Positions 43,269 through 54,019 of a stretch of 64,000 bases of DNA are shown here, piece after piece. This DNA comes from Streptomyces sp. SLBN-118. GTDB lineage: Bacteria > Actinomycetota > Actinomycetes > Streptomycetales > Streptomycetaceae. Where the stretch lies: assembly GCF_006715635.1 (NCBI RefSeq), contig NZ_VFNP01000002.1, positions 2,666,001 through 2,730,000 on the forward strand, read 5' to 3'. Position numbers and translations under genes: made by a program. The notes below the pieces were generated by a model that was not told where the DNA came from, ran no database searches, and worked only from the letters and a program-made list of their open reading frames with translations. The stretch's first letter is position 1, and each line of letters opens with the position of its first letter.

Positions 43269-44672
43269 GTGACATACCCGCCGAATGTGCGCACCGCGCC
43301 CCAGTCGGCACCGGGGCACGCGCCCGCACAGCCACCGGTCCGGCCGGCTGCCCAGCCGCCCGCACACCGCGGCGCCTGGGCCATGGGCAAGGAGCGACTG
43401 CTGACCGCGGCGACGACCGAGCCGGGGCGGCTGCAGATCATCGGGGCCGTTCTGGCCGCGCTGGTCGTGGCGTTCGGCGCGGTGACCGCGTTCGAGATCT
43501 CCGACCGCGCTTCCGCGGCCGACGATGTGGTGAGCCGCAGTCAGCCGCTGAGCGCGGACGCCGCGTCCATCCACCGCTCCCTGGCCGACGCGGACGCGGC
43601 GGCCGCCAATGGCTTTCTCGCCGGCGCCGAAGAGCCCCGCGCGATCCACGAGCGGTACGAGAAGGACATCACCGCCGCCTCCAGGCTGCTCGTCAACGCC
43701 GCGGCGAACACGGACAGTGCGACCGAGTCGGGCCGCCAGATTTCCGCTCTCAACGAGCAGCTGCCCCGCTATACGGGCCTGATAGAGCGCGCCCGCGCCA
43801 ACAACCGGCAGGGCCTGCCGCTCGGCGGCGCCTATCTGCGCTACGCCAACCTGAAGATGTCGAACGAGCTGCTGCCCGCCGCCGACAAGCTCTACCAGGC
43901 GGAGACGAAGCGCCTGGGCGAGGACAACGACGACGCACGCGACTGGCCGTTCGTCTCCCTCGGCCTGGGTGTGCTGGCGCTGGGCGCGCTCTTCTGGGCC
44001 CAGCGGCGCAACTACCGGCGTACGAACCGGATGTTCAACCACGGGCTGCTCGCCGCCACCGCCGCGTCGACCGTCGTCATGCTCTGGCTGATCGTGGGAC
44101 ACACGGTGGCCCGTGCCGAGCTGAACAACGCCATGGAGCACGGCCAGGAGTCCCTGAGGGCCCTCAACAGCTCGCGGGTACAGGCGCTGCAGGCCCGTGC
44201 CAACGAGAATCTGGCGGTCGTCTCCCGGGGCGCGGTCCTCACCCCGGACGGCAAGAACGACCAGTACGAATTCAATTACACGAACCGGATGGACGCGGTC
44301 GGTGTAGCGCTGACGTGGGCGAAGGACCTGGCTGACGACTTCGAGGGCCGCGATCCCGTCGCGAACGCCACCACGGCGGTCGCCGAGTGGCGCACCCGCC
44401 ACAAGAAGGCGCGTGAGACCGACAACGGCGGAGACTACGACAGCGCGCTGCAGCAGATCATCGGCCAGAAGGCGTCGACGGGCCAGTCGTTCGACACGGT
44501 GGACGCGGCGCTGCGCAAGGCGATCGACCATGAGCAGCGGGAGTTCACGGCGTCGGCGACCTCCGGGCGCGGCGCGCTGGACGGGCTGCCGGTCGGTGCC
44601 GCCGCACTGGCCGTGCTCGGCGCGGCGGGAGCCGTACTGGGCATCAACCGCAGGCTTTCGGAGTACCGGTGA
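43269..44672 (+). CDS. glnX: GlnX-like membrane sensor
   Basis: 467 residues with a Pro/Ala-rich cytoplasmic start, helix 1 at about residues 56-75, a large helical extracytoplasmic region (about 80-215), two closely spaced helices (about 220-238 and 258-280), a second helical extracytoplasmic region and a last helix near 440-462. This four-helix, two-sensor-domain layout and its position before a GlnH-like and a PknG gene match GlnX, which in mycobacteria passes the amino-acid signal of GlnH to the kinase PknG. GTG 43269 follows a GGGGGAGG site; the frame is open further upstream to 43032 without a better start. The stop overlaps a possible GTG of the next gene. Confidence 0.75.
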   Translation: MTYPPNVRTAPQSAPGHAPAQPPVRPAAQPPAHRGAWAMGKERLLTAATTEPGRLQIIGAVLAALVVAFGAVTAFEISDRASAADDVVSRSQPLSADAASIHRSLADADAAAANGFLAGAEEPRAIHERYEKDITAASRLLVNAAANTDSATESGRQISALNEQLPRYTGLIERARANNRQGLPLGGAYLRYANLKMSNELLPAADKLYQAETKRLGEDNDDARDWPFVSLGLGVLALGALFWAQRRNYRRTNRMFNHGLLAATAASTVVMLWLIVGHTVARAELNNAMEHGQESLRALNSSRVQALQARANENLAVVSRGAVLTPDGKNDQYEFNYTNRMDAVGVALTWAKDLADDFEGRDPVANATTAVAEWRTRHKKARETDNGGDYDSALQQIIGQKASTGQSFDTVDAALRKAIDHEQREFTASATSGRGALDGLPVGAAALAVLGAAGAVLGINRRLSEYR

Positions 44673-44683
44673 GAGGGGGCGCC

Positions 44684-45688
44684 ATGAGGGACGTGAGGAG
44701 CAGGATCCGCGGCTGGGAGGGCGTCGCGGGGATGGCGGCCGCCTGCGCGCTGACCGCCGCCGTCATACTGCTGCCGCTCTCCAGAGGTACGCAGGAGCAC
44801 GGCTCGGAGCCGGCCACCCAGGGCGTGGCCTCGGTCGTGCCAGCCAAGGACGACTGCACCAGCCCCGAGGCATCGCTTCCGTCGTCGACCGCCGGCGGAC
44901 CGGCCATCGACGCGATCGTGAAGCGCGGCAAGCTGATTGTCGGCGTCGACCAGAACAGCTACCGCTGGGGTTACCGCAATCCCGCCAGCGGCGGCCTCGA
45001 AGGCTTCGACATCGATCTCGCCCGGGCCATCGCCAAGGACATCCTCGGCAGGCCCGACGCGATCATCTTCCGCGCCATCCCGACCAACCAGCGCATACCT
45101 GCCCTCAACAACGGCACGGTGGACATCGTCGTCCGTACGATGACGATCAACTGCGCCCGCATCAAGCAGGTCGCGTTCTCCACCGCGTACTTCCAGACCG
45201 GCCAGCAGGTGCTCGCCCCCAAGGGGTCGTCGATCACCGGATACAACGGGTCGCTGTCCGGGAAGAAGGTCTGCTCGGCCGAGGGCTCGACGGCCTACGA
45301 GGCCCTGGAGAAGAACTCCTTCGGGGCGACGTTCAAGGACGCTCACGACGGGCAGGCATCGGACGAGGACCAGCTCACCGTGCCCAATCAGCTCGACTGC
45401 CTGGTGCGGCTGCAGCTGGGCCTCGTCGACGCGGTCGTCACGGACGCGGCCCTCGCGGCGGGCCAGGCCGCCCAGGACCCGGCGGTCCAGCTCAAGGGCG
45501 GCAAGCCCTTCACCACCGAGTTCTACGGCGTCGCCACCAAGCTGGGCAACGACGACCTGGTGCGCCGTGTGAACAGCGTGCTCGACGACTACCGCAAGGG
45601 CCCGTGGACGGAGGCGTACAACAAGTGGCTGGTGGCCGATCTGCCCGGGATATCCGGGCCGCCCGCGCCGAAGTACCGCACCGGCTGA
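44684..45688 (+). CDS. glnH: GlnH-like amino-acid-binding protein, membrane anchored
   Basis: A 334-residue family 3 extracellular solute-binding protein (glutamate/glutamine type): KLIVGVDQNSYRWGYRNPASGGLEGFDIDLARAIA is the classical lobe 1 opening and NNGTVDIVVRTMTI and AFSTAYFQTGQQVL the hinge region. No permease or ATPase gene is near, which supports sensing rather than transport. The N terminus has one hydrophobic helix (about residues 14-33) without a proper lipobox, so it may be anchored by an uncleaved helix. ATG 44684 has GAGAGGGGG directly ahead; GTG 44669, overlapping the previous stop, is the alternative. In the mycobacterial system GlnH senses aspartate and glutamate. Confidence 0.82.
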   Translation: MRDVRSRIRGWEGVAGMAAACALTAAVILLPLSRGTQEHGSEPATQGVASVVPAKDDCTSPEASLPSSTAGGPAIDAIVKRGKLIVGVDQNSYRWGYRNPASGGLEGFDIDLARAIAKDILGRPDAIIFRAIPTNQRIPALNNGTVDIVVRTMTINCARIKQVAFSTAYFQTGQQVLAPKGSSITGYNGSLSGKKVCSAEGSTAYEALEKNSFGATFKDAHDGQASDEDQLTVPNQLDCLVRLQLGLVDAVVTDAALAAGQAAQDPAVQLKGGKPFTTEFYGVATKLGNDDLVRRVNSVLDDYRKGPWTEAYNKWLVADLPGISGPPAPKYRTG

Positions 45689-45754
45689 AGCCCGGCACGA
45701 ACAACTAGTCCTGCAAGAAAGCAAGTCCTGCAAGGTAGAGCGGAGAGGTGATCG

Positions 45755-47086
45755 ATGGGCGCGGCGGGACCCTCCCCCAGCTTCGCGGGGGGACCCCCAG
45801 GACCGGTGATGGACCGGGACGAGGTGGACCGTGCACTGGCGCGCCTCGGCGCGGAGCACGAAGCGATCGAGACGTCGCTCCTTGCCCTCCAGGACCATGC
45901 CGGCCGCCGGCTCCTCGAAGGCGCCGAGCTGACGGGCGTCACCAAGGACCGCTGGGCCTCCGCCGAGCAGGCGATCACCCTGCTGTGGGGGTACTTCGAC
46001 GCGTACACCGCCGCCCTGAACGACACCCGTGAGCTGCGTTCGCGCCGTCGCTGGCCCAGCCGTGAGGATCTGGTGGAGCTGACCGAACGGCTGCGAGGCC
46101 GCAGTGTCACGGTCGCCGGCACGGCCACGCACACCGCGCCGTCCATCACCGGACCCGCCAAGCTCTCCGAGCAGTTCACGCTCGAAGAGCTGGTCGCCCG
46201 GATGAACGAGCTGTACGCGAGCTCGCTGGACATGGTCGTCACGGCCGACTCGGTGTGGTCGGCGCTGCCCGCCCGCATAGATCTGCTCTCCGCCGAACTG
46301 CAGCGGACCCGCTCACTCGCGCACTCCGTGGGCGTACGGCCCGGCGAGCACCCGGCCGGTGACGAGCTGGAGGCGATCACCCATGAGCTGTCCACGCTGC
46401 GCGCCCAGGTGATCTCCGACCCGCTCGCCTTCTGGCGGCCCGCGCCCGGCAGTTCGGCCCCGGGCGGCGGACGGCCCGACACCGACCGCTACGACCGGGC
46501 GGCCCGCGCCCTCGAGGACATCCGCCGCGAGATCGAGGCGGTGCTCCGCGTCCGGCAGGACTCCGAGGAGCGGCTGATGCGGCTGCGCGACGTGCTCTCG
46601 CGCGCCGACCGGACGCTGACCGAGGCACGGTCCGCGCGCGGCGAGGTGCTGGCGAAGATCGCGGCCTCCGAGGTGCCCGCGGTCAGCGGCCCGCCGACCG
46701 CACTGCAGGAGCGGCTTGCCACGGCCGCCGAGTACCGCAGGCACTCCCAGTGGCACCGGCTCTCGCCACTTCTCGAATCGCTGGAGCGCGAGGCCGAGGA
46801 CGAACTGATGCGCGCCCGCGAGTCGTTGACAGCCGTGACCGCGCCGCTTGCCGTCCGCGCGGAGCTGCGCGGCCGTCTGGACGCGTACAAGGCGAAGGTG
46901 GCCCGGCACGGAATGGCGGAGGACCCGCTGCTGATCGAGCGGTACGACGCCGCCCGCCGGATGCTGTGGAGCGCGCCGTGCGATCTGCGCGTCGCGGAAC
47001 AGGCGGTGCTGCGCTATCAGCAGGCCGCCGCCGAAGTACTGGTCCCGCGCCAGGCCGGGCCCGAGGACCGCAGGGGGGAATCATGA
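45755..47086 (+). CDS. Helical/coiled-coil protein of the PknG cluster, unknown function
   Basis: 443 residues, no signal peptide or membrane helix. Almost entirely charged helices with heptad-like stretches (EDIRREIEAVLRVRQDSEERLMRLRDVLSRADRTL around residues 250-290), so probably an elongated cytoplasmic scaffold. It sits between glnH and pknG with an ATGA overlap to pknG, and so is likely to work with the kinase. ATG 45755 has GGAGAGG 6 bases ahead, but residues 5-17 are encoded by a palindromic repeat; the natural core probably begins at MDRDEVDRALARL (ATG 45809), so the true start is uncertain. Confidence 0.78.
   Translation: MGAAGPSPSFAGGPPGPVMDRDEVDRALARLGAEHEAIETSLLALQDHAGRRLLEGAELTGVTKDRWASAEQAITLLWGYFDAYTAALNDTRELRSRRRWPSREDLVELTERLRGRSVTVAGTATHTAPSITGPAKLSEQFTLEELVARMNELYASSLDMVVTADSVWSALPARIDLLSAELQRTRSLAHSVGVRPGEHPAGDELEAITHELSTLRAQVISDPLAFWRPAPGSSAPGGGRPDTDRYDRAARALEDIRREIEAVLRVRQDSEERLMRLRDVLSRADRTLTEARSARGEVLAKIAASEVPAVSGPPTALQERLATAAEYRRHSQWHRLSPLLESLEREAEDELMRARESLTAVTAPLAVRAELRGRLDAYKAKVARHGMAEDPLLIERYDAARRMLWSAPCDLRVAEQAVLRYQQAAAEVLVPRQAGPEDRRGES
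45768..45800. repeat. Palindromic repeat copy inside a coding sequence
   Basis: TCCCCC (45773-45778) pairs with GGGGGA (45788-45793) around a TTCG-containing loop and is followed by CCCCCA. The same element type stands at 3282-3311 after asd (shared CTCCCCCAG..TTCG..GGGGGGACCCCCA). Here it lies in frame near the 5' end of the coiled-coil gene. Confidence 0.65.
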
Positions 47087-49731
47087 GCGAGAACAGCACG
47101 TGCCAGCGTCCCGGCTGCGAGGGCAGCTACGAGGACATGGGCGGCGGTGAGCTGTACTGCGACACCTGCGGGCTCGCACCCGTCGTCTCGTCGAACGGCA
47201 TGGTGTCCTCGCAGCCCACCGGCATCACGGGCGGCGGCCGGGACTCCAGCTCCGCGCGCAGCAGTTCACGCTCTTCGCGGGCCTCGTCGCGCTCGTCGAC
47301 CTCGCGGCGTTCCGTCTCCGGCCGGCTGTCGCGCTCGCTGACCGGGAGCAGTACGTCGACCCGGTCGGTCTCGGTGCGCAGTTCCGGCTCCTCCACGGGC
47401 GCGTCCGGCCGCAACCGGCTGGGCGCGGGCCTGGTCTCGGTGCCGGAGGTGCCGCGCCCCGATCCGCGTACGGCGGTGATGGAGAACCCCGAGGTCCCCG
47501 AGCGCAAGCGGTTCTGCTCGCGCTCCGACTGCGGGGCGCCGGTGGGCCGTTCGCGCGGTGAGCGACCCGGGCGTACGGAGGGTTTCTGCACCAAGTGCGG
47601 CCACCCGTATTCGTTCGTGCCCAAGCTCGCCGACGGCGACATCGTGCATGGGCAGTACGAAGTGGTGGGCTGCCTCGCCCACGGCGGCCTGGGCTGGGTC
47701 TATCTGGCGGTGGACCGCGCGGTATCCGACCGGTGGGTGGTACTCAAGGGTCTGCTGGACACGGGCGACCAGGACGCCATGGCCGCGGCGATCTCGGAGC
47801 GCCGCTTCCTCGCGGAGATCGAGCACTCCAACATCGTTCGTATCTACAACTTCGTGGAACATCTCGACCAGCGCACGGGCTCGCTCGACGGCTACATCGT
47901 CATGGAGTACGTCGGAGGCAAGTCGCTGAAGGAGATCGCCAACGAACGGCGCGACACGGCGGGCAAGCGCGATCCGCTGCCGGTCGAGCAGGCGTGTGCG
48001 TACGGCATCGAGGCGCTGGAGGCGCTCGGGCATCTGCACAGCCGGAACCTGCTGTACTGCGACTTCAAGGTCGACAACGCCATCCAGCAGCAGGACCAGC
48101 TCAAGCTCATCGACATGGGCGCGGTCCGCAGGATGGACGACGACGAGTCCGCGATCTACGGCACGGTCGGCTACCAGGCTCCGGAGGTCGCCGAGGTCGG
48201 CCCTTCGGTCGCCTCCGACCTGTACACCGTCGCGCGCACACTGGCGGTGCTGACCTTCGACTTCCAGGGCTACACGAACGTGTTCGTGGACTCCCTTCCG
48301 GACCCGGAGAACATCAAGGTCTTCCAGACGTACGAGTCCTTCTACCGGCTGCTGGTGCGGGCGACGGACCCGGACCCGGCGCGGCGGTTCGCCTCGGCGC
48401 AGGAGATGGCGGAGCAGCTGACGGGAGTGCTCAGGGAGGTCGTCGCGATCCAGACGGGCCGGCCGCGGCCCTCGCTTTCGACGCTGTTCGGGCCCGAACT
48501 GCGGGTCACGGACACGCAGTTGTTCGCGGAGCTGACGGGAGACGTGTCACAGCTGGGCGGGCGTGCGACGACTTCCGGCCGCGGACGCGGTAAGCAGTCG
48601 GCGGTCGCTGCGAACGACTCGGTGGCGGTGGGCGGCTCGGCCCCGTCGGGCGCGGGAGCCGACGGACACGGGCCCGGCGGAGCCGGCAACGCCGACCCGA
48701 TCCCGGCACCCCGCGCCGGAGGTCTTGCCCCGCCCCCGGCGAAGCTCGCACCCCACCTCGCCGCGCTGGACCCCCGCGCGACCTCACTCGCAATGCCGGT
48801 GCCCCGCGTCGATCCGAACGACCCCAATGCCGGTTTCCTCGCGGGTCTCATGGCATCGGCCCCCGCCGAGCTGATCGCCGCCCTGCACTCCGCCTCCGCG
48901 GCCTCCCCGGAGACCCGGCTGCGTGAGCTGCGCGCCCGCCTGGAGATGGGTGAACTGGACTCCGCGAGCAAGGCGCTCGCGACCCTGGAGAGCCAACATC
49001 CCGACGACTGGCGGGTCGTCTGGTACCGCGGCCTCACCTCCCTGGTGACCGGGGAGAACGAGATCGCGGCGCTCTCCTTCGACGCGATCTACGACGCGTT
49101 CCCCGGCGAGCCCGCGCCCAAGCTGGCGCTGGGCGTCTGCGCCGAGGTGCTCGGCCAGCTGGACAACGCCGCGGAGTACTACCGCTTGGTGTGGACGACC
49201 GACCCGAGCTATGTCAGCGCCGCGTTCGGCCTCGCGCGGGTGCAGCTCGCGGCGGGCGACCGCGCCGGAGCCGTGCGGACGCTGGAGTCGGTGCCGGAGG
49301 CGTCGATCCACTACACGGCGGCGCGGGTGGCCGCCGTGCGGGCGAGGCTGCGGCGACGCGCCGTGCACGAGCCGCTGATCGGCGACCTGTTGGCCGCCGC
49401 CGCGCAGGTGGACGGCCTGAAGGACTTCGGTCTGGACGCGGTGCGGCGCGAGCAGTTGTCGACAGAAGTACTCGGCACGGCCCTGGACTGGGTACTCTCC
49501 GGTAGTCCCGGAGCCCCTCCGTCCGTACAGAACGCACCGCACGGGCCGAACGCACCGCACGCGGCGCACAGCACGCCGACCGTGCTGCTCGGCAGCGAAC
49601 TGGACGAGCGCGGCCTGCGCTTCGGGCTGGAACGCTCCTACCGGGTACTCGCCCGGCTCGCCCAGCGCGGCGAGGAGCGGATCGACCTGGTGGAGCGGGC
49701 CAACCGCTTCCGCCCCCGGACGTGGGTGTGA
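47083..49731 (+). CDS. pknG: Serine/threonine protein kinase PknG
   Basis: 882 residues, cytoplasmic. N terminus: a Cys4 zinc ribbon (Cys7, 12, 26, 29), a Ser/Arg-rich stretch (about 45-110), then the rubredoxin-like metal site of PknG (Cys145, 150, 169, 172). Kinase domain about 190-460: Gly-rich loop AHGGLGWVY, catalytic Lys222 in VVLKG, the PknG-type catalytic loop YCDFKVDN (Asp327, Lys329, Asn332) instead of HRD, and IDMG (Asp344) instead of DFG. The C-terminal ~250 residues form TPR-like repeats. Mycobacterial PknG controls amino-acid and 2-oxoglutarate metabolism through GarA/OdhI. The extra N-terminal ribbon and Ser-rich segment are beyond the mycobacterial layout. ATG 47083 overlaps the previous stop (ATGA) and has AGGGGGGA ahead. 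Confidence 0.93.
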   Translation: MSENSTCQRPGCEGSYEDMGGGELYCDTCGLAPVVSSNGMVSSQPTGITGGGRDSSSARSSSRSSRASSRSSTSRRSVSGRLSRSLTGSSTSTRSVSVRSSGSSTGASGRNRLGAGLVSVPEVPRPDPRTAVMENPEVPERKRFCSRSDCGAPVGRSRGERPGRTEGFCTKCGHPYSFVPKLADGDIVHGQYEVVGCLAHGGLGWVYLAVDRAVSDRWVVLKGLLDTGDQDAMAAAISERRFLAEIEHSNIVRIYNFVEHLDQRTGSLDGYIVMEYVGGKSLKEIANERRDTAGKRDPLPVEQACAYGIEALEALGHLHSRNLLYCDFKVDNAIQQQDQLKLIDMGAVRRMDDDESAIYGTVGYQAPEVAEVGPSVASDLYTVARTLAVLTFDFQGYTNVFVDSLPDPENIKVFQTYESFYRLLVRATDPDPARRFASAQEMAEQLTGVLREVVAIQTGRPRPSLSTLFGPELRVTDTQLFAELTGDVSQLGGRATTSGRGRGKQSAVAANDSVAVGGSAPSGAGADGHGPGGAGNADPIPAPRAGGLAPPPAKLAPHLAALDPRATSLAMPVPRVDPNDPNAGFLAGLMASAPAELIAALHSASAASPETRLRELRARLEMGELDSASKALATLESQHPDDWRVVWYRGLTSLVTGENEIAALSFDAIYDAFPGEPAPKLALGVCAEVLGQLDNAAEYYRLVWTTDPSYVSAAFGLARVQLAAGDRAGAVRTLESVPEASIHYTAARVAAVRARLRRRAVHEPLIGDLLAAAAQVDGLKDFGLDAVRREQLSTEVLGTALDWVLSGSPGAPPSVQNAPHGPNAPHAAHSTPTVLLGSELDERGLRFGLERSYRVLARLAQRGEERIDLVERANRFRPRTWV

Positions 49732-51119
49732 TGATGGCCTCGCAGATGCACCAGCCGGCCGCGGGGTCTGCCTGCCCGAGCTGCGCGGAACCGCTGGAGA
49801 CGGGTGACCTTTTCTGCGGTGCGTGCGGACAAGACCTCTCGGCCGTGCCCGAGCAGCCGCTCGACCACCCGACCATCCCCATCGGTACGGCGGCCCAGTG
49901 GCCGGCAGCGACCGGCACGGACAGTGCGGGTGCCCAGGCGCCCACGCACCGGCCCGGCGACGTGCCGGGCACGGACTCGGGCGGCGGCCCGCTGACCGCC
50001 CCGGCGGCCGTACGGTACGACAACCGGCCGGGTCGTGAGGCACCGTCGACCGTGTCGACCGGCGCCACGGCCGTCCCTGCCCAGGACGTCTCGTCCAGTG
50101 GCGATTTCGAGCTGCCCGCACCCGAGGCAGCTCCCGCCGCCGACCCGCGCGCCGTGGACCCCGTCACTCCCCCGTCCGGCACCAAGCTCTGCGTGGCCTG
50201 CCGCGCCGGTCATGTCGACACCGACGGCTACTGCGAGAACTGCGGCCACGCCCAGCCCCGCGAACGCGACCACTGGGAGCGTGAGCTCGGCTCGGTCGCC
50301 GCGGTCAGCGACCGCGGACTGCGCCACCACCGCAACGAGGACTCGTTCGCGGTCTCCTCCACCGCCCTGCCCGACGGTTCACCGGCCGTTGTCGCGATCG
50401 TCTGCGACGGGGTGTCGTCGGCGACCCGTCCCGACGAGGCCTCCGAGGCCGCGGCGAGCGCCGCCAACGAACTGCTGCTGGAGACCCTGCCGCGCGGCAC
50501 GCACCCCCAGCAGGCCATGCACGAGGCGATCGTCGCGGCCGCGGACGCGGTCAACTCCCTTGCCGCCGGTTCCGGTGAGGCCGAGGCGATGGAGCACCAC
50601 CCGCACCGCCACCAGAACGCGCCCGCATGCACGATCGTCGGCGCGGTCGCCGCCGGTGGCCTGCTGGTCGTCGGCTGGGTCGGCGACAGCCGGGCGTACT
50701 GGGTGCCCGACGACCGCAGCGGACCGCCCGCCCGGCTCACCGAGGACGACTCCTGGGCCGCCCAGATGGTGGCGGCGGGCCTGATGAGCGAGGCCGAGGC
50801 GTACGCGGACGAGCGCGCCCACGCCATCACGGGCTGGCTGGGAGCCGACGCGTACGAACTGGAGCCGCACACCGCGTCCTTCAAGCCGGATCGTTCCGGT
50901 GTGGTCGTGGTCTGCACGGACGGCCTGTGGAACTACGCCGAGGCGGCCGAGGACATGGCCCGGGCGATCCCGGCCGATGCCGCGGACCGGCCGCTGCACA
51001 GTGCGCAGGTTCTGGTCGGTCATGCCCTGGACGGTGGGGGCCACGACAACGTAACAGTGGCCGTGCTGCCGTTCGCCGTGCCGCAGCAAGGGGCAGGATC
51101 GGCCTACAACAAGGCTTGA
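49731..51119 (+). CDS. PP2C-type Ser/Thr protein phosphatase with N-terminal zinc ribbons
   Basis: 462 residues. Two zinc ribbons lie ahead of the catalytic domain: Cys15, 18, 29, 32 and Cys154, 157, 168, 171, joined by a ~120-residue Pro/Thr/Ala-rich linker. The PP2C domain (about 190-450) has the metal and phosphate motifs SDRGLRHHRNEDSF, VCDGVSS, GDSRAYW, CTDGLWNY and GGHDNVTV. It is likely to reverse PknG phosphorylation, as the start ATG 49731 overlaps the pknG stop (TGATG). Earlier in-frame starts (GTG 49722, 49728) lie inside pknG and are less likely. Cytoplasmic; no membrane helix. Confidence 0.92.
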   Translation: MMASQMHQPAAGSACPSCAEPLETGDLFCGACGQDLSAVPEQPLDHPTIPIGTAAQWPAATGTDSAGAQAPTHRPGDVPGTDSGGGPLTAPAAVRYDNRPGREAPSTVSTGATAVPAQDVSSSGDFELPAPEAAPAADPRAVDPVTPPSGTKLCVACRAGHVDTDGYCENCGHAQPRERDHWERELGSVAAVSDRGLRHHRNEDSFAVSSTALPDGSPAVVAIVCDGVSSATRPDEASEAAASAANELLLETLPRGTHPQQAMHEAIVAAADAVNSLAAGSGEAEAMEHHPHRHQNAPACTIVGAVAAGGLLVVGWVGDSRAYWVPDDRSGPPARLTEDDSWAAQMVAAGLMSEAEAYADERAHAITGWLGADAYELEPHTASFKPDRSGVVVVCTDGLWNYAEAAEDMARAIPADAADRPLHSAQVLVGHALDGGGHDNVTVAVLPFAVPQQGAGSAYNKA

Positions 51120-51216
51120 GCCCCGTTTTGTCCGCGGCTTGGGGTCCTTCATGCCGCTTCTCGCTGACCGATTCTGACCAACTCTGCCCGAGCGGAGCCT
51201 CAAGGAGCCGATTCAG

Positions 51217-52575
51217 ATGGCTGTTTTCTCCAAGTCCCAGGTGCCGCAGTTCTCCGTCGAGGTCTACCAGAACGAATACCTGCCGGAGGGCGGCCGCGAG
51301 GTGAACGCGATCGTCACCGTCACCTCCACGGGAGGCGGAACCAGCGGCGGCGCTCCGCTCACGGGCGCCACCCCCTCCCCCTCTGCCATACCCGGGCAGG
51401 CACCGAGCGCGGCTGTAGTGATCATGGTCGACTGTTCCGGCTCGATGGACTACCCGCCGATCAAGATGCGCAATGCCCGTGATGCCACGGCCGCCGCCAT
51501 CGACACCCTGCGCGACGGCGTCGCCTTCGCGGTGGTCGCGGGCACGCATGTGGCCGCCGAGGTCTTTCCCGGCGGCGGAAAGCTCGCCGTGGCCGATCCG
51601 GCGACCCGCGCCCAGGCCAAGGACGCCCTGCGGCGGCTGACCGCGGGCGGCGGCACCGCGATCGGCACCTGGCTGCGGCTGGCCGACCGGCTGCTCGCCA
51701 CCTCCGACGGCGCGATCCGGCACGGAATCCTGCTCACCGACGGCCGTAACGAGCACGAGGCGCCGGAGGATCTGCGGGCCACGCTCGACGCGGTCGCGGG
51801 CCGCTTCACCTGCGACGCCCGGGGCGTGGGGACCGACTGGGAGGTCAAGGAGGTCACCGGTATCGCCTCCGCGCTGCTCGGCACGGCCGACATCGTCGCG
51901 AACCCGGCCGAGCTGGCTGCCGACTTCACCAGCATGATGGAGAACGCGATGGGCAAGGAGGTCGCGGACGTGGCGCTGCGACTGTGGACGCCTGTCGGCG
52001 TGGAGATCAAGTTCATCAAGCAAGTGGCGCCGACGGTCGAGGAGTTGACGGCAAGGCGTACGGAGGCCGGCCCGCGGGCCGGGGACTACCCCACAGGATC
52101 CTGGGGCGACGAGTCCCGCGACTATCACGTATGCGTCCAGGTACCGGAGGCCGGCATCGGCCGGGAAATGCTTGCGGCCCGCGTCTCGCTGATCATTCCG
52201 GCCGCGGACGGCGGCGCTCCGCAGGTGCTGTCGCAGGGTCTCGTACGCGCGGTGTGGACGGACGACATGGTGGCGTCCACCTCGATCAACCCGCAGGTCG
52301 CGCACTACACAGGTCAGGCCGAACTGGCACAAGTCATCCAGCAGGGGCTGGATGCTCGCAAGTCGGGCGACATCGACGGCGCGACAGCGAAGCTGGGCCG
52401 GGCGGTACAACTCGCGTCGGACTCGGGTAACGAGGACACTGCGAAACTGCTTTCGAAGGTGGTGGACGTCGTCGATGCTGCGACGGGTACTGTGCGACTG
52501 AAGGCGAAGGTGGCGGAGGCGGACGAGATGACCCTCGAAACGCGCTCCACCAAGACCGTTCGTGTCAAGAAGTAG
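51217..52575 (+). CDS. VWA-domain protein of the PknG cluster
   Basis: 452 residues, cytoplasmic. An N-terminal beta region (VFSKSQVPQFSVEVYQNEYLPEG) is followed by a von Willebrand A domain with an intact MIDAS motif DCSGS (Asp72, Ser74, Ser76), TDGRNEH downstream, and a C-terminal helical part (GLDARKSGDIDGATAKLGRAVQLASD). VWA domains bind partner proteins through a metal ion, so this could be an assembly factor or substrate of the kinase. AAGGAG lies about 10 bases before ATG 51217. Its 97-base gap to the phosphatase gene holds no terminator, so it probably belongs to the same transcript. Confidence 0.9.
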   Translation: MAVFSKSQVPQFSVEVYQNEYLPEGGREVNAIVTVTSTGGGTSGGAPLTGATPSPSAIPGQAPSAAVVIMVDCSGSMDYPPIKMRNARDATAAAIDTLRDGVAFAVVAGTHVAAEVFPGGGKLAVADPATRAQAKDALRRLTAGGGTAIGTWLRLADRLLATSDGAIRHGILLTDGRNEHEAPEDLRATLDAVAGRFTCDARGVGTDWEVKEVTGIASALLGTADIVANPAELAADFTSMMENAMGKEVADVALRLWTPVGVEIKFIKQVAPTVEELTARRTEAGPRAGDYPTGSWGDESRDYHVCVQVPEAGIGREMLAARVSLIIPAADGGAPQVLSQGLVRAVWTDDMVASTSINPQVAHYTGQAELAQVIQQGLDARKSGDIDGATAKLGRAVQLASDSGNEDTAKLLSKVVDVVDAATGTVRLKAKVAEADEMTLETRSTKTVRVKK

Positions 52576-52648
52576 CCAGCGAGAACCACCCAGATTCACC
52601 GATGTGAAACGGCCCCCGGGCCGGACGAGGAGAGGGGGAAGCGCCGAC

Positions 52649-53809
52649 ATGCCGACCTGCCCGAACGGACACCAGTCGGGTTCCGACGACTGGTGCGAGG
52701 TCTGTGGCCACCGCATGGCCGGTCCTGGCGCTCCCGCGGGTGCCGTGCCGCCTCCTCCACCGCCACCGCCCGCCTACGGCTACCCCGGCCCCCCTCCCGG
52801 CGCCGGTGACCCGAACGCCACCGCCCAGGCAGAGCTCTGCCCGCAATGCCGCACGCCGCGCGAGGCCATGGCCCCGTTCTGTGAGGAGTGCCGGTACAAC
52901 TTCCTCACGCACACGGCGACGTCCTACACTCCGCTGGCTCCGCCGCAGCCGGTCGGCGGGCTGAACCTGCCGCCGGGCTTCCAGGCGCAGCAGGGGCCGC
53001 CGCAGCCTCAGCACCCGAATCCGCCGCAGCACGACCCGTACGACTACCAGAGCTCGCGGCCCTCGCAGATGAACCGGCCCGCCGAGCCGCTGACGAACGA
53101 GCCGCCGGCGCAGCACCAGCCACCGCAGGCCTTCCAGCAGCAGGGGCCGCCGCCCGTGCCGCAGGCGTTCCAGCAGCAACCGGGTCCGCCCCCGCCGCCC
53201 GCGTATCAGCAGCCCGCGCCTCCGGCGCCGCCGGGGCACCAGCAGACGGGCGGCGGGGACGACTGGATGCTGTCCCCGCCCTCGCAGACGCAGGCACCAC
53301 AGCAGCCGCACCCGTTCCAGCAGCCCATGCAGCCGCAGTACAACCAGCAGCCAGACCCGCCGCAGGCTCAGCAGACCCCGCCGCAGTACCAGCAGCAGGC
53401 ACCCGCGGGCTGGACGGCCGTCATCGCGCCCGACCGTGAGTACTTCCTGGCGATGATGCAGCGCAGCGGCCCGGACGCGAGCGGCCTCAACCTGCCCGCG
53501 TACTCCCCCGAGCAGCAGCTCCCCCTCGTCGGCAACCAGATCACCATCGGCCGCCGCCGGCACTCCACCGGCGAGTCCCCCGACATCGATCTGTCCGTAC
53601 CGCCGGAGGACCCGGGCGTCTCGCACCAGCACGCGGTGCTGGTGCAACAGCCCGACGGCTCGTGGGCGGTCGTCGATCAGAACTCCACCAACGGCACCAC
53701 GCTCAACGGCGCCGAGGACCCGATCCAGCCCTATGTCCCGATACCGCTGAACGAGGGCGACCGGGTCCATGTCGGAGCCTGGACGACGATCACGATCCGC
53801 CGGGGCTAG
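52649..53809 (+). CDS. FHA-domain protein with double zinc ribbon and Pro/Gln-rich linker
   Basis: 386 residues. An N-terminal CPNGH..CEVC ribbon (Cys4, His8/Cys16, Cys19) and a second ribbon (Cys64, 67, 78, 81) are followed by ~200 residues of Pro/Gln-rich, disordered linker and a C-terminal FHA domain (about 300-386: TIGRRR, SHQHAVL, NSTNGTTLNG), which binds phosphothreonine. It is the natural reader of PknG phosphorylation. ATG 52649 is chosen because it begins the first ribbon and has an AGAGGGGGA site; the frame is open upstream to 52562. The stop codon TAG is part of the terminal repeat of the MITE-like element that follows. Confidence 0.9.
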   Translation: MPTCPNGHQSGSDDWCEVCGHRMAGPGAPAGAVPPPPPPPPAYGYPGPPPGAGDPNATAQAELCPQCRTPREAMAPFCEECRYNFLTHTATSYTPLAPPQPVGGLNLPPGFQAQQGPPQPQHPNPPQHDPYDYQSSRPSQMNRPAEPLTNEPPAQHQPPQAFQQQGPPPVPQAFQQQPGPPPPPAYQQPAPPAPPGHQQTGGGDDWMLSPPSQTQAPQQPHPFQQPMQPQYNQQPDPPQAQQTPPQYQQQAPAGWTAVIAPDREYFLAMMQRSGPDASGLNLPAYSPEQQLPLVGNQITIGRRRHSTGESPDIDLSVPPEDPGVSHQHAVLVQQPDGSWAVVDQNSTNGTTLNGAEDPIQPYVPIPLNEGDRVHVGAWTTITIRRG

Positions 53810-54019
53810 GGCGTGTTTTGGAAGTCTCGCCCGCCCCGCGACGCCTGGCACGCACTCCCCCGTAGCCCTTCGGGCACGGGAGGTGCCCCCACGCGGCGTT
53901 GTCGGAGTCGCCCAAGTACGTCCAGTACGAGGGCGATCCTCCGCCTTGCGATTGCACGCACCAGACGCCGCGGGGCCCGCCCTGCGGCCGGACGGCGCCA
54001 CTTCTAAAACACGCCCTAG
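53806..54019. mobile_element. MITE-like element, 214 bp
   Basis: Terminal inverted repeats of 20 bases (53806-53825 and 54000-54019) match at 19 positions; each end begins CTAGGGCGTGTTTT. CTAG at both outer ends may be a target-site duplication, as made by IS5-type transposases, or part of the repeat. The inside has no gene and contains a nested palindrome of another family (ACTCCCCC at 53854-53861 with GGGAGGTGCCCCC at 53878-53890). The internal sequence resembles elements I have seen often in streptomycete genomes. It is non-autonomous. Confidence 0.8.

What the first reader, a model, noticed from the sequence alone, without database searches (positions are those of the whole stretch)
43269..53809. 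Complete amino-acid-sensing phospho-signalling cluster: GlnX, GlnH, scaffold, PknG, PP2C, VWA, FHA
Seven co-directional genes, with stop/start overlaps at 47083 and 49731, encode a membrane sensor, a solute-binding protein without any transporter, an unknown helical protein, the kinase PknG, a PP2C phosphatase, a VWA protein and an FHA reader. In mycobacteria GlnX, GlnH and PknG form an aspartate/glutamate sensing route. The extension by phosphatase, VWA and FHA genes would give sense, write, erase and read functions in one locus. I am not aware of a description of this full circuit in Streptomyces.
Basis: partly seen in the sequence, partly recalled or inferred. Interest (0 to 1): 0.8.

Follow-up and report, generated by a model that had tools for sequence, protein, structure and literature searches.

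The report
Seven-gene PknG amino-acid signalling module
A Streptomyces chromosome carries a conserved seven-gene kit that probably lets the cell sense an outside amino acid and switch proteins on and off by phosphorylation; the well-known three-gene mycobacterial version appears to be a cut-down form of it.

Summary
Seven co-directional genes (43269-53809) encode GlnX, GlnH, a helical protein, PknG, PP2C, a VWA protein and an FHA protein. All 23 PknG-selected loci of the window's genus keep all seven; one further locus (L129) is decayed. In that genus PknG and VWA occur together in 41 of 44 genomes, and the other 3 have neither intact. The glnX-glnH-pknG core is already reported for Streptomyces (PMC6069109); the extension was not found described in my searches. 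On the best-rooted PknG tree the seven-gene form is ancestral and the mycobacterial operon derived, but the root rests on distant outgroups. Limits: GlnH has Gln where M. tuberculosis GlnH has Trp232, so Asp/Glu specificity is not established; PknG has a zinc-ribbon-like N-terminus and basic Ser-rich linker instead of an acidic segment; GarA is encoded elsewhere. Best reading: GlnH and GlnX signal to PknG, the helical and VWA proteins assemble the complex, FHA reads and PP2C erases. Active-site residues are conserved; the wiring is inferred.

The parts
43269..44672 (+). GlnX-family membrane signal transducer, 467 aa, four hydrophobic segments
   Evidence: NF058618 480 bits, cut-off 250; hydropathy peaks at residues 57-75, 226-244, 259-277, 441-459
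44669..45688 (+). GlnH-type family 3 solute-binding protein, 339 aa, N-terminal hydrophobic segment without a clear lipobox (by eye)
   Evidence: SBP_bac_3 E 4.9e-27; best solved relative M. tuberculosis GlnH 6h1u, E 8.6e-48
45755..47086 (+). Helical scaffold-like protein, 443 aa, no Pfam family, conserved C-terminal ELRGRLDAY-type motif
   Evidence: 2576 relatives at E <= 0.001 among 7993 scored candidates, 120 listed; model pLDDT 90.7, pTM 0.74, mostly helical; alignment of 17
47083..49731 (+). PknG kinase, 882 aa: N-terminal Cys pairs of zinc-ribbon type, basic Ser/Arg-rich linker, rubredoxin domain, kinase, TPR domain
   Evidence: PF16919, PF00069, PF16918 above cut-off; 2pzi E 3.7e-165; catalytic K222, D327, D344; Cys pairs
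49731..51119 (+). PP2C phosphatase with N-terminal Cys pairs of zinc-ribbon type, 462 aa
   Evidence: PF13672 E 7.3e-14; zinc-ribbon profiles match below their cut-offs; metal-binding Asp positions kept in 139-140 of 140 sequences
51217..52575 (+). Stand-alone VWA protein with VWA_3_C domain and intact MIDAS residues, 452 aa
   Evidence: PF18571 E 3.3e-23; solved family member 4fx5; five MIDAS positions invariant in 137 of 137
52649..53809 (+). FHA protein: N-terminal Cys pairs of zinc-ribbon type, Pro/Gln-rich linker, C-terminal FHA domain, 386 aa
   Evidence: PF00498 E 4.4e-15; DZR profile below its cut-off; FHA Ser and Asn kept in 129 of 129, Arg position Arg in 109 and Lys in 20

Best explanation
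The locus encodes one Ser/Thr phospho-signalling pathway built on PknG. GlnH binds an amino acid outside the membrane and GlnX passes the signal across it. PknG receives it, probably through its TPR domain, and phosphorylates itself and targets. The adjacent FHA protein reads phosphothreonines, the adjacent PP2C removes them, and the helical protein and VWA protein hold or assemble the complex. A separately encoded GarA is a likely output that tunes 2-oxoglutarate dehydrogenase and glutamate metabolism. Shown here: gene order, families, intact active-site residues, conservation, co-loss of VWA with PknG, presence of GarA and of an OdhA-type enzyme in the genome. Inferred: every interaction, the direction of signalling, the ligand and the target. 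On the best-rooted tree the seven-gene form is ancestral, and the mycobacterial three-gene operon lost the helical, PP2C, VWA and FHA genes.
For: All seven genes in 23 of 23 PknG-selected loci of the window's genus and the window order in 96 of 157 loci overall. The GlnX-GlnH pair lies upstream, downstream or on the opposite strand of an otherwise constant Scaf-PknG-PP2C-VWA-FHA run, so linkage persists through rearrangement. Strong VWA matches never occur without PknG: 97 of 97 VWA-strong genomes are among the 148 PknG-strong ones of 393. In the window's genus the three genomes without intact PknG also lack intact VWA. Active-site residues conserved. GarA family in 33 of 33 genomes searched and in the window's own; OdhA-type enzyme in the window's genome. 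In the rooted tree 13 f3 kinases without the extension (9 with GlnX-GlnH, 4 alone) are nested among seven-gene ones; parsimony on hand-coded labels puts VWA at the base of the PknG clade. Two cassettes without GlnX/GlnH also lack the kinase TPR region.
Against: No interaction, phosphorylation or expression data. GlnH lacks Trp232. The TPR-GlnX link has exceptions: TPR-bearing kinases with no GlnX in the stretch fetched are L052, L055, L058, L249 and the lone f3 copies L061, L117, L120, L121. A strong VWA match is missing from 36 of 38 PknG-bearing f3 genomes, 9 of 31 in f92 (two of these keep partial matches) and 4 of 23 in f93, so PknG can work without it. The tree root rests on long outgroup branches. 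GarA persists in three genomes of the window's genus without intact PknG, so GarA does not depend on this kinase alone.
Confidence: 0.6

Rival explanations
1. The extension is a separate output arm. PknG, with the helical protein, VWA, FHA and PP2C, controls its own target through the FHA protein, and GarA is served mainly by another kinase such as PknB.
For: No GarA-like docking motif was matched in 131 extended PknGs. GarA persists in genomes of the window's genus that lost PknG. Genomes G669 and G595, which hold VWA and several PknG copies, have a GarA without Cys-pair ribbon. Scaf-kinase-PP2C-VWA-FHA cassettes exist without GlnX/GlnH (L247, L250).
Against: The docking motif was matched in only 3 of 20 PknGs without the extension either, so its absence says little. 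GarA and an OdhA-type enzyme are present in the window's genome, and GarA keeps an ETTST motif resembling the known phosphosite.
Confidence: 0.25
2. The sensor reads a different ligand from mycobacterial GlnH: another amino acid or a broader range. This is compatible with the best explanation.
For: Position 232 is Gln in 68 of 146 GlnH sequences including the window, Trp in 35, other residues in 43.
Against: R147 is invariant in all 146 and T162, R169 and D250 are kept in the window, so an acidic amino acid remains possible.
Confidence: 0.3
3. The downstream genes are only neighbours and not part of the PknG pathway.
For: Gaps of 97 and 73 bases precede VWA and FHA, leaving room for separate promoters.
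Against: Conserved order, relocation together and co-loss.
Confidence: 0.05

Closest known systems
GlnH-GlnX-PknG-GarA/OdhI pathway of Mycobacterium and Corynebacterium (PMC6069109, PMC8546545, PMC9769921; passages seen)
   Same: Homologous GlnX, GlnH and PknG, with rubredoxin and TPR domains as in mycobacteria; GarA family in the genome
   Different: Adds helical, PP2C, VWA and FHA genes; PknG and GarA carry N-terminal Cys pairs of zinc-ribbon type; GlnH pocket Trp232 is Gln; no clear GlnH lipobox in the window protein (by eye)
Kinase/PP2C/vWA theme of actinobacterial GAP1-N2 GTPase-centric systems (PMC7159879, section 29 read)
   Same: Active kinase often with zinc ribbon, next to an active PP2C and a stand-alone vWA gene
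   Different: No GTPase or GAP1 domain in the module or in the eight flanking genes scanned; the window has GlnX, GlnH, a PknG TPR domain and FHA
Threonine phosphorylation pathway of type VI secretion, PpkA/PppA/Fha1 (PMC3224232, passages seen)
   Same: Kinase, PP2C, VWA domain and FHA reader under an envelope signal
   Different: PpkA carries an extracellular VWA domain in the same protein; here kinase and VWA are separate proteins, and no secretion genes were among the flanks scanned
TerY-P triad (recalled from memory; one search listed one paper, not opened)
   Same: VWA, PP2C and kinase encoded together
   Different: The VWA here has VWA_3_C and no TerY C-terminal domain among its Pfam hits
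VWA family with solved structure 4fx5
   Same: Full-length homolog of the VWA protein
   Different: Only the deposited molecule name, von Willebrand factor type A, was seen; no function

Membership tests
PknG kinase family | Rubredoxin domain next to a kinase domain | tested here: met
   PF16919 114 bits, PF00069 90 bits
PknG kinase family | C-terminal PknG TPR domain | tested here: met
   PF16918 292 bits
PknG kinase family | Catalytic Lys and two Asp | tested here: met
   K222, D327, D344 in the window; conserved in 157, 158 and 158 of 158
PknG kinase family | N-terminal pThr segment that recruits GarA | tested here: inconclusive
   Window has Cys pairs and a basic Ser-rich linker; the GarA-like motif was matched in 0 of 131 extended and only 3 of 20 core PknGs, and docking sites are not strictly defined
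GlnH-GlnX-PknG amino-acid sensing operon | GlnX family membrane protein next to pknG | tested here: met
   NF058618 480 bits, over its cut-off; the narrower equivalog NF041460 is below its cut-off, 202 against 780
GlnH-GlnX-PknG amino-acid sensing operon | GlnH pocket for Asp/Glu: R147, T162, S164, R169, W232, D250 | tested here: inconclusive
   R147, T162, R169, D250 kept; S164 is T; W232 is Q
GlnH-GlnX-PknG amino-acid sensing operon | GarA/OdhI target in the genome | tested here: met
   190 bits, just below the family's 200-bit cut-off
GlnH-GlnX-PknG amino-acid sensing operon | Ligand-dependent activation of PknG | not testable with these tools
   Needs binding and phosphorylation assays
GarA/OdhI (window FHA gene) | OdhI profile score and N-terminal TTS phosphosite | tested here: not met
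   22 bits; no ETTS in the protein
GAP1-N2 GTPase-centric system | GTPase and GAP1 genes nearby | tested here: not met
   No such domain in eight flanking genes (E <= 1e-5) or the seven module genes
Type VI threonine phosphorylation pathway | Kinase with its own VWA domain, in a T6SS locus | tested here: not met
   No VWA domain in PknG; no secretion genes among the flanks scanned
TerY-P triad | TerY C-terminal domain on the VWA protein (recalled) | tested here: not met
   Only VWA families and VWA_3_C at E <= 0.01

The most novel reading that the evidence does not exclude
The seven-gene module encodes a membrane-tethered phospho-signalling complex held together by the helical protein, the VWA protein and zinc ribbons shared by PknG, PP2C, FHA and GarA. 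In the lineage of the mycobacterial three-gene operon this was dismantled: the assembly genes were lost, PknG and GarA lost their zinc ribbons, and pThr/FHA docking took over substrate recruitment. Mycobacterial PknG would then be a stripped relic whose missing phosphatase and adaptor are still visible in Streptomyces.
Probability: 0.25. Interest if true: 0.75.

Novelty: new variant of a known kind. Interest (0 to 1): 0.55.

Why it matters
PknG is a much-studied mycobacterial kinase, and how its signal crosses the membrane, is switched off and reaches its targets is not settled. A conserved locus that keeps a dedicated phosphatase, phospho-reader, VWA protein and helical protein beside it gives named candidates for those steps in a tractable genus. 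It also suggests that the textbook three-gene operon is a reduced form.

Tried and rejected

Literature: a paper describing the seven-gene unit was not found (13 of 14 listed; 5 of 6; 1 of 1; 20 of 103; 12 of 12; 10 of 11; 2 of 2; 10 of 43); open-licence PMC only. For the papers cited I saw abstracts, passages or named sections, never a whole text.

Rows dropped and biases: one search leaves out second PknG-type loci L052-L058, the 2-kb L059, the decayed L129, the GarA locus L130 and the short genome-search loci; one search leaves out kinases under 800 bits; one search leaves out GlnH under 200 bits. Two of the three core loci with Cys-pair ribbon (L077, L094) are cut by a contig end. In one search the labels were typed by hand; L074 (VWA fragment) and L106 (VWA lies beyond the stretch fetched) were coded as having VWA. 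Families f1-f108 and genera are the tool's anonymous labels; the window's genus is taken as Streptomyces from names. Only part of the PknG-positive genomes was fetched, chosen by hand for family spread. In G093, which has three GarA-type matches, only the best was read. On re-checking I lowered the novel case from 0.30 to 0.25, because the docking motif is rare in core PknGs too.
Full report
What is there. Seven co-directional genes occupy 43269-53809, with gaps of -4, 66, -4, -1, 97 and 73 bases. Profile searches identify GlnX, a family 3 solute-binding protein, a protein without Pfam family, PknG (rubredoxin, kinase, TPR), PP2C, VWA with VWA_3_C, and FHA. PknG, PP2C and FHA have Cys pairs of zinc-ribbon type near their N-termini. 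I call these zinc ribbons by pattern only: Pfam zinc-ribbon profiles match PP2C and FHA below their cut-offs, and none was listed for the extreme N-terminus of PknG. The best relatives of the helical protein are Streptomyces proteins at up to 95% identity, so I take the window's genus as Streptomyces. Flanking genes are a sugar-type ABC/GH4/BadF-type cluster upstream, and a PCMT-like methyltransferase and a globin downstream; I do not count them as part of the module.

Conservation. I searched 393 genomes of the class for the PknG TPR domain and for the VWA protein. Strong PknG matches (E < 1e-40) occur in 148 and strong VWA matches (E < 1e-100) in 97, all inside the 148 (handles transcribed by hand). 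In the window's genus 41 of 44 have both and the remaining 3 have neither intact. One of these, G295, still holds fragments of PknG, VWA and GlnX beside intact-looking helical, PP2C and FHA frames (L129). Elsewhere strong VWA accompanies PknG in 9 of 9 genomes of f7, 22 of 31 of f92, 19 of 23 of f93, 1 of 1 of f88, 2 of 2 of f108, 1 of 2 of f10 (there beside a second kinase, L054), 0 of 1 of f99 and 2 of 38 of f3, the family that holds Nocardia and, by its PknG sequences, the mycobacteria.

Gene order. Among 80 loci chosen through PknG, all seven genes are found in 23 of 23 of the window's genus, 12 of 23 f92, 7 of 11 f93, 1 of 4 f7 (the other three lack only a detectable helical gene), 1 of 1 f88, 0 of 1 f108 (region cut short), 0 of 2 f10, 1 of 14 f3 and 1 of 1 f43, a family outside the class. 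A named set fetched through VWA (best 80 of at least 550, biased by that choice) has the exact window order in 65 of 80, including Nocardia, several Mycobacterium and Mycolicibacterium, Kitasatospora, Streptacidiphilus, Actinacidiphila, Actinoplanes and Winogradskya. Actinoallomurus has GlnX-GlnH downstream of the five-gene run, Pseudonocardia eucalypti has none detected, and an uncultured Acidimicrobiales bin has GlnX on the opposite strand. Over 157 loci, 96 have the window order, 13 have Scaf-PknG-PP2C-VWA-FHA-GlnX-GlnH, 5 the same without a detected Scaf, 2 have GlnH/GlnX on the opposite strand, 11 are GlnX-GlnH-PknG only, and 30 are other arrangements, some cut by contig ends.

Evolution. 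In a tree of 71 PknG-type kinases 13 f3 kinases without the extension (9 with GlnX-GlnH, 4 alone) form one clade (100), sister to 11 seven-gene Nocardia/Mycobacterium kinases (24 rows together, 94). Genome G669 holds both kinds (L119, L122). Parsimony on hand-coded labels puts VWA at the base of the PknG clade, with five changes over the whole tree. A second tree of 34 rows agrees on that grouping (96/95) but is unrooted. The root depends on distant kinases with long branches, so ancestral is the best reading and not proof.

Variant cassettes. In f93 there are Scaf-kinase-PP2C-VWA-FHA sets without GlnX/GlnH whose kinase lacks the TPR region (L247, L250), Scaf-PknG-VWA-GlnX sets (L253, L254), a Scaf-FHA-PknG-VWA set with GlnH/GlnX on the opposite strand (L256), and sets with two GlnX-GlnH pairs around Scaf-PknG-VWA-FHA (L255, L257, L258). 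The six sets with GlnX have kinases that match to the end of the profile. This fits the proposal in PMC8546545 (passages) that the TPR domain couples to GlnX. Against it, L052, L055, L058 and L249 keep TPR-matching kinases with no GlnX detected in the stretch fetched, and so do the lone f3 copies L061, L117, L120 and L121.

Mechanism. Active sites are intact: the kinase Lys/Asp/Asp, four PP2C Asp, five VWA MIDAS positions and the FHA Ser, His and Asn are conserved in all or all but one of 129-158 sequences, while the FHA Arg is Arg in 109 and Lys in 20 of 129. The GlnH pocket keeps R147 in 146 of 146, but position 232 is Gln in 68, Trp in 35 and something else in 43. The 68 are the window, 23 of 23 other loci of its genus and 44 of 44 named Streptomycetaceae-type loci. 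PMC6069109 (passage) lists W232 among the side-chain contacts of bound Asp and predicts Asp/Glu specificity across the Actinomycetales. The GarA/OdhI family is present in 33 of 33 genomes searched and in the window's genome, with an OdhA-type enzyme.

Zinc ribbons and docking. GarA carries N-terminal Cys pairs in 22 of 22 sequences outside f3 and f10 and in 0 of 12 within them; TSVFR is present in those 12 and in none of the 22 (partly read by eye). PknG has them in 119 of 131 loci with VWA and PP2C, 5 of 6 partial loci and 3 of 20 core loci; the 60-residue linker averages 1.6 acidic residues in the first group and 7.8 in the core group. A TQALFRPDFD segment, like the GarA TSVFRADF, occurs in two mycobacterium-like PknGs (L115, L116) and a looser match in L061; the other 17 of 20 core PknGs and all 131 extended ones show none. 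PMC8546545 (passages) reports that pThr sites in this N-terminal region recruit the FHA substrate. The contrast may mark two ways of recruiting substrate, but it follows one lineage and counts as few events, and G669 and G595 have a GarA without the ribbon although they hold VWA.

Helical protein. The model is confident (pLDDT 90.7, pTM 0.74) and mostly helical. No solved fold stands out. Its C-terminal part is what short variants keep (L253-L258), which suggests, without proof, contact with the kinase.

Known and new. PMC6069109 (abstract) already states that sensor, signalling and effector proteins are conserved in Streptomyces. The extension was not found in my literature searches. The nearest described neighbourhood is kinase + PP2C + vWA in actinobacterial GTPase systems (PMC7159879, section 29). 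I therefore rate it a new variant of a known kind.

Noticed in passing
53806-54019: A 214-bp element with 26-nt inverted arms (88% complementary) abuts the FHA stop codon. Its 17-base arm motif occurs 16 times in the genome, three pairs of them spanning 208 bp (this one included), one 175 and one 62, so it looks like a small mobile element.
   Followed up: partly
L129: A locus of the window's genus (G295) with broken PknG, VWA and GlnX frames beside intact-looking helical, PP2C and FHA frames; a natural loss of the pathway.
   Followed up: partly
L052 (window genome C2, near 3441726): A second PknG-type kinase with TPR similarity and none of the other six module genes detected; a copy of the small repeat element lies within 3 kb.
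   Followed up: no
L255, L257, L258: PknG sets flanked by two separate GlnX-GlnH pairs, as if two sensors feed one kinase.
   Followed up: no
44669-45688: GlnH has an N-terminal hydrophobic segment without a clear lipobox, unlike the lipobox-like ends seen in mycobacterial and Nocardia relatives (by eye).
   Followed up: partly
L130:7304-8191: The GarA of the window's genome has N-terminal Cys pairs and an ETTSTIS motif and is encoded far from the module.
   Followed up: yes
L246, L251, L252: PP2C-VWA-FHA sets in f93 with no PknG-like kinase detected next to them; L252 also has the helical gene.
   Followed up: no
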